Below are positions 24,841 to 32,710 of a stretch of 32,710 nucleotides of DNA, piece after piece. The position numbers and the translations under genes were made by a program. The notes below the pieces were generated by a model. It searched no databases and was not told the DNA's origin. It saw only the letters and a program-made list of their open reading frames with translations. Source of the DNA: an uncultured Bacteroidales bacterium. GTDB lineage: Bacteria; Bacteroidota; Bacteroidia; Bacteroidales; Paludibacteraceae. The DNA is taken from contig ONUF01000018.1 in the NCBI GenBank assembly GCA_900321005.1, forward strand, positions 1 through 32,710. Reading direction: 5' to 3'. How positions within the stretch are numbered: position 1 is the stretch's first letter; the number at the start of each line of letters is the position of its first letter.

Positions 24841-24872
24841 CAAAAGTACAACTTTTTCTCCATATATGCAAA
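24841..24872 (-). promoter_or_regulatory. Bacteroidota-type promoter of the DASS-barrel operon
   Basis: On the minus strand TTTGCATATATG starts at 24872 and the -7 element TACTTTTG covers 24848-24841, with a 20-nt spacer. The leader to the start at 24754 is about 80 nt. It diverges from the nuclease promoter. Confidence 0.78.
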
Positions 24873-24900
24873 TTTTTTTTGTAAAAAAAATGTTTTGTTA

Positions 24901-24932
24901 TTTGCACATGTCAATTTTTTGTAGTACCTTTG
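24901..24932 (+). promoter_or_regulatory. Bacteroidota-type promoter of the nuclease genes
   Basis: TTTGCACATGTC starts at 24901 and TACCTTTG is at 24925-24932, with a 20-nt spacer. It places the transcription start near 24939 and supports the ATG at 24956 as the nuclease start, because the longer reading frame would begin upstream of the promoter. Confidence 0.78.
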
Positions 24933-24955
24933 CACCCGTTTTTAATTTTTGTACC

Positions 24956-26761
24956 ATGCAAAAGCATATTTATCTTTTGTCTTTGAGCGTAGCGGTCCTA
25001 TGTCTTTTGTCCGCCAACGTCTTTGCCAAATCCGTTACTCCGGCGGCGAACATCCCCTCGTATTGGTCCTCCGTGGACGGTAAGTCCGGTGCGGAACTAT
25101 GGAAAGCCATAAGCGCGCAAACCAACGTCGGCTTTTCTTCTATCGGTTACAAAGGCCTCTATTCGGCCTACCTCAAGACCGATCTCTATCCTGCTGATTC
25201 CGCAAGCAGAGCCGGTAAGATATGGGATATGTACGGCGAGTGTAACTTTGCCCCGACAAAGACCTGCGGTAGTTATAAAAGCGTATGCGATTGCTATAAC
25301 CGCGAGCACTCGATTCCGCAATCGTGGTTTGGCGGAGGAACAAGCGGAATAGGATGTGATATTTTCCATGTCCTCCCTACCGACGGAAAGGTTAATGGCG
25401 TTCGCTCGAACTACGAATACGGCGAAGTGAACGGAGGCACCAACTGGGTGGGCAATAAGTTCGGTTCGGCCGGCTCGTGGTCCACTGACAAGAAGACCAT
25501 TGCTTCGGCAGCAGGCGAGTCGGTGAGCGGAACGGGACAGGTCTTCGAACCCAAGCAGCAGTACAAGGGTGACATCGCCCGCGGTATCATGGGTACCATT
25601 ATCAAATGGCAACACTCCAGTCTCACCTCCGGCAATAACTTCTTCAATAGCACCTATACCGTTTCCGGCAATTTTGGTCTCACAAAGAAAGCCGTCGTGC
25701 TCCTGATGAAGTGGCACCGCGAAGACCCTGTATCGCGCAAGGAGATCGACCGCAATAACGGTATCCAGGAAACTCAGGGAAACCGTAACCCCTTTATCGA
25801 TTACCCGTACCTCGCGGAGTATATATGGGGCGAGAAAGCAGGTGAGACCGTGGACATGTCCAAACTCATGGCATCCTGCGATCCGGCCTTCGTGCCCGGT
25901 AAAAGTAACGGTTGGCGCGATGGTTCGGGACCCGACGATCCGACGGCTCTTTTCTTTGGTGTCACATGGTCCGTCAACGGCGAGAAACTTCAGGTGGACT
26001 CCGTCGCAGAGGCGAATCATATTTTCGCGCTGCCCGACGCTCCCGTCAGCTGCTCGTCCGAGAGCCCGGTCTTCACGGGCTGGACCGACGCACCCATTGA
26101 AGGGATAGCAGAAGATGCGCCTGCGGTGCTCTATACCGCTCTCGGTCAGTTCCCTCCCGTCATGGCAGACATCACTTATTATGCGGTCTTTGCCCACGCA
26201 GGAGAAGGTTCGTCTGAACCCGCTACCTATACCTATAGCGCCAACGACCCGATTGCCGATTGGTCCAATACAGCGACCAACAAAGGTTCGTACTGGTTGC
26301 TCGATAGCGGCAAAGAACTCATCTCTCCGGAAGTGGATCTCTCGGGAATCAGTTCTATCCAGGCCAAACTCCGCACCTTTGGCGGTACGCAATATGACCA
26401 GTTCAGCTTTGCTGCCGGTAACACCCGGATTGGTACGATTACTGTGAGCGAAGGTAGTATGATGACCGAGTATGAGTGGACGAACACCAAGTCCCTCTCC
26501 GGCAAATCGCGTATTACTTTCACCTGCTCCAATGCCGGATCCGGCAAAGGTGTCGGTTTCTCGTATGTCACCATCAACGCCACCGGCTCCGGTATCGCGT
26601 ACGACCGCTTTATCACTTCTTGCCAATCGACGACCGAGATCGTCCTTCCGTCCCTGCAAGGAGAGACAGAGGGTAGGCCGGTCAAACTCCTTGTCGGCGG
26701 TCAGATTTATATTCTCCTCGGCGATCAATTGTTTAACCTCCAAGGTCAACGCGTAAAATAA
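24956..26761 (+). CDS. Secreted endonuclease I family nuclease with InlB-like and T9SS-like C-terminal regions (paralogue 1)
   Basis: An extracellular non-specific nuclease of the endonuclease I family, likely degrading DNA and/or RNA for nutrition. The 601-residue product has a signal peptide (MQKHIYLLSLSVAVLCLLSANVFA) and the catalytic block NREHSIPQSWFGG (Glu117, His118). CDIFHVLPTDGKVNGVRSNYEYG (family D-x-H-x-L-x-PTD and RSN) follows. After about residue 320 comes an InlB-like segment (VFTGWTDAPIEG to ITYYAVFAHA), a beta-sandwich region, and a short sorting-like tail (GQIYILLGDQLFNLQGQRVK). The start was chosen from the promoter and signal peptide. It is 7 bases from a paralogue sharing the catalytic and InlB parts but not the beta region. 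Confidence 0.9.
   Translation: MQKHIYLLSLSVAVLCLLSANVFAKSVTPAANIPSYWSSVDGKSGAELWKAISAQTNVGFSSIGYKGLYSAYLKTDLYPADSASRAGKIWDMYGECNFAPTKTCGSYKSVCDCYNREHSIPQSWFGGGTSGIGCDIFHVLPTDGKVNGVRSNYEYGEVNGGTNWVGNKFGSAGSWSTDKKTIASAAGESVSGTGQVFEPKQQYKGDIARGIMGTIIKWQHSSLTSGNNFFNSTYTVSGNFGLTKKAVVLLMKWHREDPVSRKEIDRNNGIQETQGNRNPFIDYPYLAEYIWGEKAGETVDMSKLMASCDPAFVPGKSNGWRDGSGPDDPTALFFGVTWSVNGEKLQVDSVAEANHIFALPDAPVSCSSESPVFTGWTDAPIEGIAEDAPAVLYTALGQFPPVMADITYYAVFAHAGEGSSEPATYTYSANDPIADWSNTATNKGSYWLLDSGKELISPEVDLSGISSIQAKLRTFGGTQYDQFSFAAGNTRIGTITVSEGSMMTEYEWTNTKSLSGKSRITFTCSNAGSGKGVGFSYVTINATGSGIAYDRFITSCQSTTEIVLPSLQGETEGRPVKLLVGGQIYILLGDQLFNLQGQRVK
26660..26686. repeat. 27-nt repeat, copy 1, before the sorting-like tail of nuclease 1
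   Basis: It matches 28374-28400 at 25 of 27 positions and encodes GETEGRPVK. Codons just outside differ at third positions, so the core is more conserved than the flanking DNA. Confidence 0.75.
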
Positions 26762-26789
26762 ATATCCAATGTCCAATCTCAAATCTCAA
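26762..26789. repeat. Heptamer array covering the start of nuclease 2
   Basis: Units ATATCCA, ATGTCCA, ATCTCAA, ATCTCAA. The ATG start codon of nuclease 2 is the first triplet of the second unit, and the array encodes the N-terminal MSNLKSQ. Confidence 0.7.
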
Positions 26790-28478
26790 ATAGCGCTTGT
26801 GCTTGCGCTTTTCGTGGCGCAAGTCACAATCGCGAATGTTATCGAAGGAGTTGCCGCCATTCCTGACGGTTACTATGACGGCGTGAGCGGAAAGAAGACG
26901 CCGGCGGCTATCCTGACCGCACTCCAGACCTGTATCTCCAAAAACTACAACGAGATATCGTATAAGGGTCTTGAACCCCATTACCTCAATACCGACTTCT
27001 ACGCCGATTCGCTCTGGGATATGTATTCCACGTGCCATTTCGTCTATGAGGATGCCAATAAGGCGCAGAAAGCGGTGTGCGACGGTTGGAACAAAGAGCA
27101 TGTCTGCTGCCAGTCGTGGCTGGGTTCCGGACCTATGGTGTCCGACCTGTTCAATGTCTATCCCACCGATGCGCGTGTCAATAACCTGCGCTCGAATTAT
27201 CCTTATGGCGTGGTAGGCACGAACAAAGGTATCTCCAATGACCCCGATCACCACGCGTTGGGTAAACTGGGCACTTCCACGACGAGTGGTGTGGGTACGG
27301 TGTATGAACCTGATGATAAGTACAAAGGCGATTTCGCGCGCACGTTCTTCTATATGGTGGCGCGCTATCGCGATAAGATACTCAATTCCGGTGACGGTTC
27401 AACCATGTTCTCCTCCAATCCTACGGACCTCACGGCCTACAGCCTTTCTTTCTTGCTTGATTGGCATCGCAATGACCCGGTGTCGCAAAAAGAGATTGAC
27501 CGTAACCAAGCCGTTTATGGGGAGCAGAATAACCGCAACCCTTTCATTGATTATCCCGATCTGGTGGAGTATGTCTGGGGAACGATGAAGAACCAGCAAG
27601 TGGATCTTGAGTCCATGACGCCTACTTGTGACGGCGGTGGACAAGGACCGGTGGGGAATGTGAAATACGGCGTGTCATGGTCCGTGAACGGTACGATTGT
27701 TTCCGTGGATTCCATCGTGGAGAACAAGAAGATTCAGACGCTGCCGGAGATGCCTGAGTCGTGTTCGCCTACCAGTAATGTATTCGTAGGATGGAGTAGT
27801 GCTCCTATCAGCGGTGTTGCCGACGAGGCACCGGCGACGCTTTTCATCGCTTCCGACCAATTCCCGGCAGTGGATGCGGATATCATATACTACGCGGTCT
27901 TCGCGCACGCTGAGACCATCGACAATGGCAAAGTGGAGAGCACTGAATCCGTCAATATGAAGGCGCAAGGATTTTCCAATGGTCAGGCAGTAAGTTCCAT
28001 TCAGAAAGGAGACGTCACCATCACCTTCGGTAAAGGAACCGCCGGCTCGAATGTGCCTAAGTATTACAACACCGGCGAAGCAGTTCGTTGCTATCCGGGG
28101 AACACCTTCACGGTGACCGCTACCGAGATAACGAAGATCGTACTTACTTTCGGTTCCGGCGATTCCAATAACGCCATAACCGTCAGCACCGGTAATCTCA
28201 CCGGCAGTACGTGGACAGGTTCGGCCGACGAAGTAGTCTTCTCTGTGGGCGGTTCCAGCGGTCACCGCCGTATAGCCCAATTGGATGTCACGATGAACGG
28301 TTCCGGCGCACAGACGATCTATTCCGCTTTCCTCACCTCCTGCGATGGCACCGAAGATTTGCCTTCTCTTCAGGGAGAGACCGAGGGTAGGCCTGTCAAA
28401 GTGCTCATCGACGGTCACTTGTATATTAAGTTTGATGGTCGTCTGTACGACATCCTCGGCCGCCCCGCAAGAAATTGA
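26769..28478 (+). CDS. Secreted endonuclease I family nuclease with InlB-like and T9SS-like C-terminal regions (paralogue 2)
   Basis: The 569-residue tandem paralogue of the preceding nuclease. Its signal peptide (MSNLKSQIALVLALFVAQVTIA) begins with residues coded by a heptamer array. The catalytic block is NKEHVCCQSWLGSG (Glu110, His111), where paralogue 1 has SIPQS; the usual Pro is replaced by Cys and two adjacent Cys appear. SDLFNVYPTDARVNNLRSNYPYG follows. The InlB-like segment (VFVGWSSAPISG to IIYYAVFAHA) is shared, but the next beta region (about residues 390-530) is unrelated to that of paralogue 1. The tail GHLYIKFDGRLYDILGRPAR again resembles a T9SS sorting tail. The His-to-Asn change in the D-x-H block (LFNVYPTD) may alter activity. 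Confidence 0.88.
   Translation: MSNLKSQIALVLALFVAQVTIANVIEGVAAIPDGYYDGVSGKKTPAAILTALQTCISKNYNEISYKGLEPHYLNTDFYADSLWDMYSTCHFVYEDANKAQKAVCDGWNKEHVCCQSWLGSGPMVSDLFNVYPTDARVNNLRSNYPYGVVGTNKGISNDPDHHALGKLGTSTTSGVGTVYEPDDKYKGDFARTFFYMVARYRDKILNSGDGSTMFSSNPTDLTAYSLSFLLDWHRNDPVSQKEIDRNQAVYGEQNNRNPFIDYPDLVEYVWGTMKNQQVDLESMTPTCDGGGQGPVGNVKYGVSWSVNGTIVSVDSIVENKKIQTLPEMPESCSPTSNVFVGWSSAPISGVADEAPATLFIASDQFPAVDADIIYYAVFAHAETIDNGKVESTESVNMKAQGFSNGQAVSSIQKGDVTITFGKGTAGSNVPKYYNTGEAVRCYPGNTFTVTATEITKIVLTFGSGDSNNAITVSTGNLTGSTWTGSADEVVFSVGGSSGHRRIAQLDVTMNGSGAQTIYSAFLTSCDGTEDLPSLQGETEGRPVKVLIDGHLYIKFDGRLYDILGRPARN
28374..28400. repeat. 27-nt repeat, copy 2, before the sorting-like tail of nuclease 2
   Basis: Two mismatches to 26660-26686, same frame and same position relative to the C-terminal tail. 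Confidence 0.75.
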
Positions 28479-29422: not shown

Positions 29423-31309
29423 ATGGCAGACAATGAAAAATTAAATCTGTTGGCCGATTTTGCGCCGGTATCCGCTCAGCAGTGGAAGGACAAGATCATC
29501 GCTGACTTGAAAGGTGCCGACTTCGACAAGAAGTTGGTATGGCGCACGCCGGAAGGATTCAACGTGCAGCCGTTCTACCGCCGTGAGGATCTCAAAGGCC
29601 TGAAGACCACCGTCTCTGCGCCCGGTCAGTTCCCATACGTCCGCGGTACGCGTACTAACAACGAGTGGGCAATCCGCCAGAACATCTGCGCTTGCAAGAA
29701 CGCTCGCAAGGCAAATGCGAAAGCCCTTGAGGTGCTCAACAAAGGTATCACGTCTCTCGGTTTCTGTCTCGACAAAGACAAACTGACGTACAACTTCATC
29801 AAAACGCTCCTCAACGGCATTTATGCACCGGCAGTAGCCATCAACTTCTCTATCTGCGCATGTGCAGCGCCGAAGCTGGCGAACATCCTCGTGCGTTACT
29901 ACGGCCGTATGGGCTATGACACCAAAGGCCTCATCGGTTCGATCAACGTCGATCCAATCAAGAACATGCTCCTCAAGGGAAAAGCCCTGACCCGCGAGCA
30001 GGTATCTCAGAAGATCGCCGAGACAGTAAAGGCGGCTAAATCGCTGCCGGGTTACCGCGTCGTAGGCGTCAACAGCGTCATCCTCAATAACTCCGGCGCG
30101 TATGCCGCACAGGAGCTCGCGTACGCTCTCGCTTGGGGTGCCGAGTACATGACGATGATGACCGAGGCAGGCATCCCGAACTACCGCGCAGCCAATGCGA
30201 TCCGTTTCAACATGGGTATCGGCGGTAACTATTTCATGGAGATCGCTAAGTTCCGCGCAGGCCGTCTGCTGTGGGCAAAGATCGTTGAGGCATACAAAGA
30301 CCCGATCTTCACAACCGCTCTCCGCAATGCCGCTAAGATGAACGTCAGCGCAGAAACGAGCCGTTTCAATATGACCGTCTTTGACGCGTATGTGAACCTG
30401 CTTCGTTCGCAGACCGAGACCATGAGTGCTGCTCTCGCAGGGGTCGATGAGATCACCGTAACGCCGTTTGACGTGACCTACGAAGAGCCGACGGATTTCT
30501 CCGAGCGTATCGCTCGTAACCAGCAGTTGCTGCTCAAGGAAGAGGCACATTTCGATAAGGTCGTTGACCCCGCAGCGGGTTCGTACTACCTGGAGAACCT
30601 GACGGCGTCTATCGCTGCAGAGGCTTGGAAGCAGTTCCTTGACATCCAGGAGCGCGGCGGCATGTACCAGCTCGTTTCTGAGGGCAAGGTACAAGAGCAC
30701 ATGGCAGCGAACCTCAAAGCACGTCTCGCTGACGTTGCTAAACGCAAAGAGGTGCTCCTTGGCTCGAACCAATTCCCGAACTTCACCGAGAAAGCCGGCA
30801 AGAAGATTAAGATTTCCGAAAAGGCATGCTGCTGCAAGGGTGCTTGCGAGCCGCAGATAGCTACGCTTCCGATCGCTCGTGCAGCAGAAGAGTTTGAACA
30901 GCTGCGTCTCGAGACCGAAGCCGCTAAGAAACAGCCGGTTGCGTTCATGCTGACCATCGGTAACCTCGCCATGCGTATTGCGCGTGCGCAGTTCAGTTGT
31001 AACTTCCTCGCGTGCGCAGGATACAAGGTTATCGACAACAACGGTTTTGCTACCATCACCGAAGGTATCAAGGCAGCCCGCAAGGCGAAAGCGGACATCA
31101 TCGTCCTCTGTTCGTCTGATGACGAGTACGCTGACCTCGCGCCGAAGGCATGGAAGAAGCTGCAGGGCAAGAAAGAGCTCTTCATCGTGGCCGGTGCCCC
31201 GGCATGTATGGAGGACCTCCAGAAGCTCGGCATCACTAACTTCATCCACGTCCGTTGCAACGTCCTCGAAACCCTCAAATCGTTTAACGCGCAGTTACTG
31301 AAAAAATAA
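29423..31309 (+). CDS. mutA: Methylmalonyl-CoA mutase small subunit
   Basis: The non-catalytic subunit of the two-subunit methylmalonyl-CoA mutase that interconverts succinyl-CoA and methylmalonyl-CoA in the propionate pathway. The 628-residue product starts MADNEKLNLLADFAPVSAQQ. It has the mutase barrel region (QWKDKIIADLKGADF, KLVWRTPEGFNVQPFYRRED, VDPAAGSYYLENLT) and a C-terminal Rossmann domain (about residues 510-628). That domain lacks the DxHxxG cobalamin motif, as expected for the small subunit. The start at 29423 is preferred over an in-frame ATG at 29351, which would add a non-conserved leader. A Cys cluster, C469-C470-C471-K-G-A-C475, sits in the linker before the Rossmann domain. 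mutB lies unusually far downstream (402 nt). Confidence 0.95.
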   Translation: MADNEKLNLLADFAPVSAQQWKDKIIADLKGADFDKKLVWRTPEGFNVQPFYRREDLKGLKTTVSAPGQFPYVRGTRTNNEWAIRQNICACKNARKANAKALEVLNKGITSLGFCLDKDKLTYNFIKTLLNGIYAPAVAINFSICACAAPKLANILVRYYGRMGYDTKGLIGSINVDPIKNMLLKGKALTREQVSQKIAETVKAAKSLPGYRVVGVNSVILNNSGAYAAQELAYALAWGAEYMTMMTEAGIPNYRAANAIRFNMGIGGNYFMEIAKFRAGRLLWAKIVEAYKDPIFTTALRNAAKMNVSAETSRFNMTVFDAYVNLLRSQTETMSAALAGVDEITVTPFDVTYEEPTDFSERIARNQQLLLKEEAHFDKVVDPAAGSYYLENLTASIAAEAWKQFLDIQERGGMYQLVSEGKVQEHMAANLKARLADVAKRKEVLLGSNQFPNFTEKAGKKIKISEKACCCKGACEPQIATLPIARAAEEFEQLRLETEAAKKQPVAFMLTIGNLAMRIARAQFSCNFLACAGYKVIDNNGFATITEGIKAARKAKADIIVLCSSDDEYADLAPKAWKKLQGKKELFIVAGAPACMEDLQKLGITNFIHVRCNVLETLKSFNAQLLKK

Positions 31310-31315
31310 TTGTAA

Positions 31316-31330
31316 ATAAACAAAGATAAA
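31316..31330. repeat. 15-nt motif ATAAACAAAGATAAA, present four times in direct and inverted orientation
   Basis: Exact direct copy at 31458-31472. Inverted copies are at 31504-31518 (two differences, one compatible with G-U pairing) and 31673-31687 (one difference). The two direct copies could compete for the same inverted partner at the mutB leader start. Confidence 0.8.
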
Positions 31331-31483
31331 CCCTGTCGCTCAGTTGTAACTCTTCGAGTTTGCTAGTATTTGTTCTATAGACCTATTTATAAATAAATTT
31401 AACATAGTTCTCCAGACCAAATCCTCACCGCAGAGCGGTAACAACTAAGCGCCAGCGATAAACAAAGATAAAAATTATCCGCT

Positions 31484-31663
31484 ATGGGTAGCAGATTTGA
31501 AAATTTATTTATGTTTATGGCCGACGTGAATGATACATGGATTTATAGTAGCTTTGCTACTGCGGAACAGGATAATAAGGCGCGTGTTGAGCTCGCTCAA
31601 AAACGCGTATTATTAGGCTGGTACGCTCAAGGCAGCGTAGGCCGAAAAATCCAGGTAGCATAA
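31484..31663 (+). CDS. 59-codon ORF inside the structured element (doubtful)
   Basis: An ATG-initiated frame, MGSRFENLFMFMADVNDTWI onward to GSVGRKIQVA, ends with TAA at 31661. I recognise no family. The DNA is largely accounted for by base-paired stems of domain C, so the frame may be fortuitous. Upstream there is no Shine-Dalgarno. It is recorded because it is open over most of the element and contains three tryptophan/tyrosine-bearing segments. Confidence 0.2.
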   Translation: MGSRFENLFMFMADVNDTWIYSSFATAEQDNKARVELAQKRVLLGWYAQGSVGRKIQVA

Positions 31664-31665
31664 AC

Positions 31666-31670
31666 GGAGG
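31666..31670 (+). promoter_or_regulatory. Strong Shine-Dalgarno GGAGG before the mutB leader ORF
   Basis: GGAGG lies 9 bases before the ATG at 31680, unusual in a genome where starts mostly lack such a sequence. Bases 31665-31668 (CGGA) can pair with TCCG at 31478-31481, which would hide part of it. Confidence 0.6.
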
Positions 31671-31679
31671 TGTTTATCT

Positions 31680-31715
31680 ATGTTTATTTACCATAATAAA
31701 ATTCAAAGCATATGA
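31680..31715 (+). CDS. 11-residue leader peptide overlapping the mutB start
   Basis: ATG at 31680 behind GGAGG encodes [11 protein letters not shown]. The TGA at 31713-31715 overlaps the mutB ATG (31712-31714) as ATGA. The leader start codon lies in the distal arm of the long inverted repeat. mutB itself has no Shine-Dalgarno directly before its ATG, so it may depend on translation of this leader. Existence of the peptide is inferred. Confidence 0.4.
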
Positions 31716-32710
31716 AGCCGAATTTTAAAGATATCAACATTAAGCAAGTTTCGGCCAGCAAGGTTGTTGGCCCGAACAACGCCGACTGGCAAACGCCGGA
31801 GCTCATCGACGTCAAGCCGATCTACACCAAAGAGGACCTGCAGGGCATGGAGCACCTCGACTACGTCTCGGGTATTCCTCCGTTCCTCCGTGGCCCGTAC
31901 AGCGCCATGTATCCGCTGCGTCCCTGGACCATCCGTCAGTACGCCGGATTCTCCACCGCCGAGGAATCCAACGCTTTCTACCGCCGCAACCTCGCGTCCG
32001 GTCAGAAAGGTCTGTCTGTCGCTTTTGACCTCCCGACCCACCGCGGCTACAACGCCGATAACATGCGCGTGGTCGGCGACGTCGGCAAAGCAGGTGTGTC
32101 CATCTGCTCCCTCGAGGACATGAAGGTCCTCTTCGCCGGCATTCCATTGAACAAGATGTCCGTCTCCATGACCATGAACGGCGCCGTGCTGCCGATCCTC
32201 GCGTTCTACATCAATGCCGGACTCGAGCAGGGTGCCAAACTGGAGGAGATGGCAGGTACCATCCAGAACGATATCCTCAAGGAGTTCATGGTGCGTAACA
32301 CCTATATCTACCCGCCTAAGTTCTCCATGAAGATCATCGCCGATACCTCCCAGAACATGCCTAAGTTCAACTCCATCTCCATCTCCGGTTACCACATGCA
32401 GGAGGCCGGTGCGACGGCAGATATCGAGTTGGCTTACACGCTGGCCGACGGTATGGAGTACCTCCGCGCAGGTGTCAATGCCGGCATGGATGTCGATACG
32501 TTTGCTCCGCGTCTGTCCTTCTTCTGGGCGATCGGTATGAACCATTTCATGGAGATTGCCAAGATGCGTGCAGGTCGTATGCTCTGGGCGAAAATTGTGA
32601 AATCTTTCGGTGCCAAGAACCCGAAATCCATGGCGCTCCGTACGCACAGCCAGACCTCCGGTTGGTCGCTCACCGAGCAGGACCCGTTCAACAACGTCGG
32701 TCGTACCTGT
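31712..32710 (+). CDS. mutB: Methylmalonyl-CoA mutase large (catalytic) subunit (partial, cut at window end)
   Basis: The adenosylcobalamin-dependent subunit that carries the radical rearrangement between methylmalonyl-CoA and succinyl-CoA. 333 codons are present, of a protein usually a little over 700 residues. The N-terminal half of the substrate barrel is unmistakable: [87 protein letters not shown] and [20 protein letters not shown]. The C-terminal B12-binding domain lies beyond the window. The start is set by the conserved N-terminal sequence and the ATGA overlap with the leader ORF. Confidence 0.97.

What the first reader, a model, noticed from the sequence alone, without database searches (positions are those of the whole stretch)
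31312..31691. Inverted-repeat-bounded, highly structured 380-nt element wedged between mutA and mutB
Partner subunit genes mutA and mutB are usually adjacent or overlapping. Here 402 nt separate them, and nearly all of that is a unit bounded by a 20-nt inverted repeat (19/20). Three nested domains lie inside, including a four-way junction with a hairpin of about 16 base pairs. The stems are seen directly. Whether it is a cis-regulatory RNA (for example cobalamin- or propionate-responsive), an independent small RNA, or a MITE-like insertion is inference. An ATAAT pentamer on both flanks would fit a target duplication but is AT-rich and weak evidence.
Basis: seen in the sequence. Interest (0 to 1): 0.85.

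Follow-up and report, generated by a model that had tools for sequence, protein, structure and literature searches.

The report
Twin four-way-junction mobile DNA element
The extra DNA between two enzyme genes is a pair of mirror-image, strongly folded repeats of an apparently undescribed mobile element family, whose fuller relatives carry a nuclease-like gene of unknown function beside or between such repeats and sometimes sit at the very same spot.

Summary
The 402-nt mutA-mutB spacer is filled by two inverted modules (31314-31471 +, 31505-31689 -). Each has AT-rich direct repeats around a cloverleaf, a four-way junction with strong covariation. A module model matches 91 of 151 congeneric genomes (10 or more modules in 37) and, weakly, 1 of 197 other genomes of the order. 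In 18 of 30 congeneric loci mutA and mutB lie 5-8 nt apart, the empty site.

Unexpectedly, in 24 of 24 loci examined for one GxxExxY subfamily (PD-(D/E)XK nuclease superfamily; 28 genes known) a module lies within 100 nt of the gene, in 14 on both sides; control loci 2 of 49. Four relatives carry a module-GxxExxY-cargo-module cassette at this same junction. The window unit is best read as a gene-less, non-autonomous form of such a cassette, like REPIN/RAYT but with another protein and a far larger fold. That the nuclease moves it, and that a gene was lost here, are inferred. The held literature gave no description.

The parts
31314..31471 (+). Module A (written outer repeat to inner repeat); the strand that folds better is the minus strand
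   Evidence: R1 covariance model 123.5 bits, E 1.2e-27 (this module is one of the 40 rows R1 was built from); related copies in own and congeneric genomes
31505..31689 (-). Module B, inverted relative to A, longer core; the strand that folds better is the plus strand
   Evidence: R1 60.2 bits, E 1e-12 (not among the rows of R1); nucleotide matches at G000:C17, C24, G006:C22, G018:C32
31314..31330 (+).
31331..31456 (-). Core A: four-way junction (P1, P4 hairpin, long P3 arm, P2 hairpin), given on its better-folding strand
   Evidence: family covariation
31457..31472 (+). Inner direct repeat of module A (GATAAACAAAGATAAA)
31473..31504 (.). Spacer between the two modules, where related cassettes carry GxxExxY and cargo genes; no gene here
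31505..31519 (-). Inner direct repeat of module B
31520..31672 (+). Core B: four-way junction, given on its better-folding strand
31673..31689 (-).
29423..31309 (+). mutA, methylmalonyl-CoA mutase small subunit (left flank of the insertion; ATG chosen by me inside the listed ORF)
31712..32710 (+). mutB, methylmalonyl-CoA mutase large subunit, runs off the window (right flank)

Best explanation
The 376-nt unit is a non-autonomous mobile element: two inverted modules of 158 and 185 nt with nothing coding between them. Each module is a cloverleaf (four-way junction) that folds better on one strand, bracketed by AT-rich direct repeats whose outer copies form the ends of the unit. The fuller form is a cassette in which such modules flank a gene for a GxxExxY protein (PD-(D/E)XK nuclease superfamily), sometimes with a second cargo gene. 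The own genome holds one such gene with modules beside it (contig C17). Proposed mechanism: during replication or transcription the module strand becomes single and folds; the GxxExxY nuclease, made in trans, recognises the four-way junction and cuts at the AT-rich repeats, so that a unit or module is excised or copied into new sites between genes. Shown here: structure and covariation, dispersal, empty sites, near-identical copies within genomes, gene-module association, and full cassettes at the same mutA-mutB junction in relatives. Inferred: that the nuclease binds the fold and moves the element, and that the window unit came from a gene-bearing cassette by loss of the gene.
For: Copies: 9 exact plus 7 one-mismatch repeat sites in the own genome (three of them the window's own), reversed control 0; modules in 91 of 151 congeneric genomes, at most 19 candidates scored per genome. 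Empty sites: 18 of 30 mutA-mutB junctions of 5-8 nt, three of them with 96-97% identity over the last 150 aa of mutA. Recent spread: module-sized matches within one genome, 171 nt at 96.5%, 174 nt at 94.8%, 170 nt at 94.1%, 181 nt at 91.7%. Structure: 18 of 19 RNAalifold pairs changed on both sides; 89.9% of cells paired against 64.6% shuffled and at most 48.2% slid. Partner: 24 of 24 examined loci of one GxxExxY subfamily have a module within 100 nt, 22 on the 5' side, 14 on both sides; controls 2 of 49 loci, one of which, L149, itself has the gene. Cassettes with this gene span the mutA-mutB junction in G042, G095, G091 and G041. Genomes with >=10 modules: 34 of 78 with a GxxExxY match, 3 of 73 without. 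Family: PF13366 E 2e-31, TIGR04256 E 1.4e-31; E43, D83, E93-x-K95, Q107xxxY111 invariant in the 32 aligned.
Against: No movement was observed, and no target-site duplication is visible. Three genomes with >=10 modules (G002, G006, G137) show no GxxExxY match, though MAGs are incomplete; 67 of 127 genomes without the subfamily gene still have modules. Genomes are related, so the Fisher tests overstate independence. Y1_Tnp matches are also enriched among genomes with any module, 41 of 52 against 50 of 99, p 0.00053, less clearly at >=10 modules, p 0.069. 3'-side modules point outward in only 10 of 16 cases, 5'-side ones in 20 of 22. In the covariation control the number of further pair types is not above shuffles (38 against 39.7; 420 of 500 as high) and pairs with double change only modestly so (18 against 15.7; 4 of 500). 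The AlphaFold model of the protein was poor (pLDDT 45) and no solved structure matched by sequence at E<=1.
Confidence: 0.6

Rival explanations
1. A MITE moved in trans by some other, unidentified transposase (DDE or Y1/RAYT type); the GxxExxY gene is a passenger that travels with the repeats.
For: Layout (short, AT-rich ends, inverted, dispersed, no coding capacity) is MITE-like. Y1_Tnp matches are enriched in module-bearing genomes: 41 of 52 against 50 of 99, p 0.00053.
Against: R1 finds no module in any of 20 Y1 loci; 20 of 37 genomes with >=10 modules have no Y1 match; the GxxExxY gene is beside modules in 24 of 24 loci examined. Many Y1 matches are weak and partial. I did not scan all module loci for transposase genes, so an adjacent one may have been missed.
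Confidence: 0.2
2. The modules are resident repeats and the GxxExxY gene is a homing-type gene that inserts next to or between them; it uses the modules as its target and does not move them.
For: The nearest module lies 6-100 nt from the gene; single modules, lone repeats and gene-less pairs are common in the loci read.
Against: Module-sized DNA has itself been copied within genomes and is absent from 18 of 30 mutA-mutB junctions; in the four GxxExxY cassettes read at this junction and in the window the parts next to mutA and mutB are modules.
Confidence: 0.12
3. The cloverleaf acts as RNA: a structured transcript that serves the GxxExxY protein as guide, scaffold or antitoxin, or an intervening sequence cut out of the mutA-mutB transcript; dispersal is secondary.
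For: Strand asymmetry: with RNA energies one strand folds better in 53 of 53 cores (mean 10.9 kcal/mol), its mismatches being G.A and G.U rather than C.T and A.C. Genes of the 23S rRNA intervening-sequence protein family occupy the same junction in two relatives.
Against: G.A and G.T mismatches are (from general knowledge) also better tolerated in single-stranded DNA, so the asymmetry does not separate RNA from DNA. In an inverted pair only one of the two modules is on its better strand in any one transcript. No RNA data.
Confidence: 0.15
4. A cobalamin- or propionate-responsive cis-regulatory RNA of mutB.
For: Position between mutA and mutB; strong fold.
Against: Absent from 18 of 30 congeneric junctions; same modules at many other loci; no Rfam match.
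Confidence: 0.02

Closest known systems
REPINs and their RAYT (TnpA-REP, Y1 tyrosine transposase) genes
   Same: Inverted pairs of structured repeats dispersed in intergenic DNA, with the same repeats next to a specific gene thought to move them (passages of PMC3116915)
   Different: Partner is a PD-(D/E)XK-superfamily GxxExxY protein, not a Y1 transposase; module is a cloverleaf core of 121-183 nt inside about 16-nt direct repeats, not a 20-40-nt palindrome; cassettes may carry a second cargo gene
MITEs, e.g. BrickBuilt of Porphyromonas gingivalis (also Bacteroidales)
   Same: Short non-coding element with inverted ends, many copies, presumably moved in trans (passages of PMC4596501)
   Different: BrickBuilt ends resemble those of named P. 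gingivalis IS and enclose a minisatellite; here the inside is a covarying four-way junction and no target duplication is seen. I had no IS library, so a match to known IS ends was not tested
23S rRNA intervening-sequence elements with four-helix-bundle protein (PF05635 / TIGR02436)
   Same: Such a gene fills this same mutA-mutB junction in two relatives, L170 by profile and L169 by 72% identity to it, with inverted repeats beside it seen by eye
   Different: Different protein; R1 finds no module there; that such elements are cut out of rRNA is recalled, not tested
Cas4/RecB-type nucleases
   Same: Weak PADLOC Cas4 matches, E 0.0043 and 0.0059, for a related GxxExxY protein; D, E-x-K and QxxxY positions invariant (the link of QxxxY to RecB/Cas4 is recalled)
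   Different: The subfamily protein itself gave no PADLOC match; cas genes nearby were not looked for

Membership tests
MITE / non-autonomous mobile element | Multiple dispersed copies with empty sites in relatives | tested here: met
MITE / non-autonomous mobile element | Terminal inverted repeats and no coding capacity | tested here: met
MITE / non-autonomous mobile element | Target-site duplication (frequent, not universal) | tested here: not met
   19 units inspected by eye, no convincing direct repeat outside the ends
MITE / non-autonomous mobile element | Ends shared with an autonomous element encoding the mobilising enzyme | tested here: inconclusive
   Modules shared with GxxExxY cassettes, but enzyme activity unknown; known IS ends not searched
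REPIN / RAYT | Inverted pair of structured repeats | tested here: met
   of neighbouring modules at most 150 nt apart among 60 rows, 8 of 8 pairs are tail to tail, the window's included
REPIN / RAYT | REP of 20-40 nt with GTAG/CGTC-type foot | tested here: not met
   cores of 121-183 nt in the 53 cores kept; the REP definition is from the title and start of the abstract of PMC3733652 seen in a listing
REPIN / RAYT | Y1 transposase gene adjacent to the repeats | tested here: not met
   0 of 20 Y1 loci contain a module; 20 of 37 genomes with >=10 modules lack a Y1 match
GxxExxY cassette family (defined here) | Cloverleaf module with flanking direct repeats | tested here: met
   R1 123.5 bits (a training row) and 60.2 bits (not a training row) for the two window modules
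GxxExxY cassette family (defined here) | GxxExxY gene between the modules | tested here: not met
   only 33 nt lie between the window modules; the genome's gene is elsewhere, C17:39688-40125
Cobalamin riboswitch or other Rfam cis-regulatory RNA | Match to the covariance model | tested here: not met
   0 matches at gathering score in the window; at E<=1 in five module loci only 2 matches, neither on a module
PD-(D/E)XK nuclease superfamily (partner protein) | Family profile match and catalytic residues | tested here: met
   PF13366 109.2 bits, cut-off 22; D83, E93, K95 invariant among 32 aligned proteins; which residues are catalytic is recalled
PD-(D/E)XK nuclease superfamily (partner protein) | Nuclease activity on junction or single-stranded DNA | not testable with these tools
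   needs biochemistry

The most novel reading that the evidence does not exclude
A new class of prokaryotic mobile element in which a PD-(D/E)XK (GxxExxY) nuclease, not a DDE, HUH or tyrosine/serine recombinase, recognises a folded four-way junction at the element's ends and spreads gene cassettes and their gene-less miniatures into the junctions between co-transcribed genes; other GxxExxY subfamilies would each have their own repeat, as RAYTs have theirs.
Probability: 0.4. Interest if true: 0.9.

Novelty: new variant of a known kind. Interest (0 to 1): 0.72.

Why it matters
GxxExxY proteins are widespread (29 of 60 sampled genomes of the order, own included), and the two held papers that name them gave me no role for them. 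Tying one subfamily, locus by locus, to a specific folded repeat gives the family a testable function, adds a REPIN-like system with an unrelated protein, and accounts for a recurrent insertion spot inside a core metabolic gene pair.

Tried and rejected
Riboswitch or cis-RNA for mutAB: rejected on absence from 18 of 30 junctions, dispersal and no Rfam match. Y1/RAYT as partner: tested genus-wide; enriched at genome level but no module in any of 20 Y1 loci. Invertible-promoter or dif-type element: considered from memory only, not tested. Transposase between inverted modules: not scanned for systematically. Phage carriage: 11 IMG/VR stretches hold the bare 18-nt repeat, not examined further; no viral relative of the protein found. 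PDB relatives by sequence: none at E<=1. AlphaFold with three sequences gave pLDDT 45, so no fold search was made. Target-site duplication: none found by eye. Order-wide scan of the module: one weak match (E 2.1e-4) in G268, not followed; only two other genera of the same family are visible in that listing, so the family is thinly sampled. Flank test: the mismatched-pair null was inflated by shared repeats (maximum 545); by its 95% cut (46) only 3 of 24 subfamily, 11 of 25 divergent and 3 of 40 control loci pass, so I also give raw scores in the full report. One search used 50 of the 60 rows; the 10 left out were weak, opposite-strand or outside the 24 loci (L342 1081, L343 21, L350 595, L355, L358 x2, L359 x3, L360 3130). 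One search used 24 of the 30 loci (left out: the own gene, and five with stops or partial matches). One search left out one opposite-strand row of 40.

Full report
What is there. mutA ends at 31309 and mutB starts at 31712. The 402 nt between them hold two modules in inverted orientation, 31314-31471 and 31505-31689, with 33 nt between them. Each module reads outer repeat (AAATAAACAWAGATAAA), core, inner repeat (about RATAAACAWARATAAA). Both strands of the region fold far better than shuffles: z -5.95 and -8.55, 0 of 100 shuffles as good.

The core is a cloverleaf. Folding 53 dissimilar cores (121-183 nt; cores more than about 93% alike to one already kept were dropped) shows a long outer stem P1, two short hairpins and a long arm interrupted by mismatches, many of them purine-purine. 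On a MAFFT alignment of 40 modules, RNAalifold predicts 19 pairs and 18 have changes on both sides. Standard pairs fill 89.9% of cells against 64.6% after shuffling (0 of 500) and at most 48.2% when the partner is slid; cells with double change are 195 against 62.0 (0 of 500). Two measures are weaker: pairs with a double change 18 against 15.7 (4 of 500), and further pair types 38 against 39.7 (420 of 500). The structure was derived from this alignment, which favours it over the slid versions. On 40 rows fitted to model R2 (one an opposite-strand row; 37 distinct) 34 of 40 pairs have double changes (this alignment leans towards the structure). Without any alignment, the nine outermost P1 positions of the 53 cores hold 415 Watson-Crick pairs in 477 cells.

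One strand is the better folder. With RNA energies the reverse complement of the outer-to-inner reading is more stable in 53 of 53 cores, by 10.9 kcal/mol on average. On that strand mismatches are G.A/A.G 54 against C.T/T.C 2, and G.T/T.G 32 against A.C/C.A 12 (36 distinct rows, one opposite-strand row left out). This points to a function of one single strand, RNA or DNA; it does not tell which.

It is a dispersed family. The own genome has 9 exact and 7 one-mismatch repeat sites, three of them the window's own, reversed control 0. The outer repeat with up to one mismatch occurs in 35 of 151 congeneric genomes, up to 14 sites; the reversed control rings once in each of 7 genomes. Covariance model R1 finds modules in 91 of 151, with at most 19 candidates scored per genome, 10 or more in 37. 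Of 198 genomes of the order, the own genome and one weak case match. Near-identical copies lie at different places of one genome: 171 nt at 96.5% and 170 nt at 94.1% in G002, 174 nt at 94.8% in G048, 181 nt at 91.7% in G149. A 393-nt pair is duplicated at 88.6% on both sides of a GxxExxY gene in G138. Three collapsed modules (L012, L089, L126) lack the core and one repeat, as if lost between the direct repeats. Neighbouring modules at most 150 nt apart are tail to tail in 8 of 8 cases among 60 rows.

The site is often empty. The 30 loci are the best of 62 genomes with a mutB match among 101 searched. 18 have 5-8 nt between mutA and mutB, 8 including the window have 364-1342 nt, and 4 were unresolved: mutA outside the locus in L149 and L151, a misplaced end in L154 and L166. 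Three empty sites come from genomes with 96-97% identity over the last 150 aa of mutA.

The partner gene. A GxxExxY gene next to a module (L083) led to a genus search: 78 of 151 genomes have a match at E<=1e-10. 28 genes are at least 65% identical over at least 140 aa; 24 of them came with a locus (L331-L354). R1 over all 30 loci gave 60 matches. Of the other four genes, G091:C77 and G041:C26 were read later and have modules too; G018:C63 was not read; for G153:C45 one search lists a module about 95 nt away. Two of the 40 rows of R1 (L069) come from one of the 24 loci. Control: the same search over 49 loci (29 mutB without the window, 20 Y1_Tnp) hits 2, L149 and L156; L149 has the GxxExxY gene itself. 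The protein is PF13366 PDDEXK_3 (E 2e-31) and TIGR04256 GxxExxY (E 1.4e-31), with G28, E43, D83, E93, K95, Q107 and Y111 invariant in 32 aligned proteins.

Same junction, full cassette. In G042, G095, G091 and G041 the mutA-mutB junction is filled by module, GxxExxY gene, second gene, inverted module; G091 has an extra module. The second gene differs: TPR protein, CAT-family acyltransferase, TfoX_N protein, or a 135-aa protein without a Pfam match. G044 has modules around a 308-aa protein without a Pfam match. I fetched these loci because the gene lay beside mutB or the junction was long, so they are not a census. The window differs in having nothing between the modules. The genome's own gene, C17:39688-40125, has modules on both sides, the 3' one not outward.

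Genome-level association. Genomes with >=10 modules: 17 of 24 with the subfamily gene against 20 of 127 without; 34 of 78 with any GxxExxY match against 3 of 73; for Y1_Tnp 17 of 52 against 20 of 99 (p 0.069). With any module: 24 of 24 against 67 of 127; 59 of 78 against 32 of 73; for Y1_Tnp 41 of 52 against 50 of 99 (p 0.00053). After removing two modules per gene, 22 of 24 carriers still have modules against 67 of 127, and carriers keep a median of 11 against 1. Shared descent inflates these p-values.

Wider GxxExxY genes. With an inverted-repeat score of at least 30 between the two flanks, 19 of 25 divergent GxxExxY genes and 12 of 24 subfamily genes of the genus score, against 4 of 40 control intervals, all four at Y1 loci; by the 95% cut of mismatched flanks (46, inflated by shared repeats) it is 11 of 25, 3 of 24 and 3 of 40. 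In other genera of the order, 11 of 24 score at least 30 and 12 of 24 exceed all of 100 shuffles, against 18 of 500 mismatched pairs at 30 or more. So inverted repeats around GxxExxY genes reach beyond this subfamily, mostly without a recognisable cloverleaf: R1 hits 2 of the 25 divergent genus loci, L386 beside the gene and L373 about 800 nt away.

Literature. 'GxxExxY' occurs in 2 held papers; in the one whose passage I read it is only an annotation beside a reverse transcriptase (PMC8934634), the other I saw in the listing only. PDDEXK_3 gave 0, rumen with Paludibacteraceae and transposable element 0. The search for Bacteroidetes MITEs gave 5 papers, of which I read passages of PMC4596501. 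REPIN architecture is from passages of PMC3116915. These searches show no description of this family; most subscription papers and all bioRxiv preprints are not held.

Mechanism. The simplest account is a REPIN-like system: a trans-acting GxxExxY nuclease that recognises the folded module, and gene-less pairs that it can still move. Structure, dispersal and association are shown; binding, cutting and movement are inferred.

Noticed in passing
L169, L170 (G080, G073 mutA-mutB junctions): Genes of the four-helix-bundle / 23S rRNA intervening-sequence protein family (PF05635 for L170, 72% identical protein in L169) fill the same junction, with inverted repeats seen by eye.
   Followed up: partly
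L145, L148, L150, L365, L366: Other GxxExxY subfamilies sit in the mutA-mutB junction of G047, G087, G061, G071 and G076 with inverted repeats but no module by R1.
   Followed up: partly
L368 (G003 mutA-mutB junction): A gene-less insertion (spacer 364 nt) with inverted ends of a different sequence (AAAGAAAAATGCG) fills the same junction; R1 does not match it.
   Followed up: no
L361-L364, L367: Cassettes at the mutA-mutB junction carry different further genes (TPR, CAT-family acyltransferase, TfoX_N, two without Pfam match), suggesting cargo exchange.
   Followed up: partly
L306, L316: Near-perfect palindromes found on both sides of the centre of Y1_Tnp loci, possible RAYT/REP pairs of this genus.
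   Followed up: no
L389-L410, L414, L418 (other Bacteroidales families): 11 of 24 GxxExxY genes have inverted flanks scoring 30 or more; some genomes give many matches (12 in G030, 10 in G197).
   Followed up: partly
window 24866-28478: Two tandem, related predicted proteins (631 and 569 aa) that look, from memory, like secreted endonuclease-I-type nucleases; family not tested.
   Followed up: no
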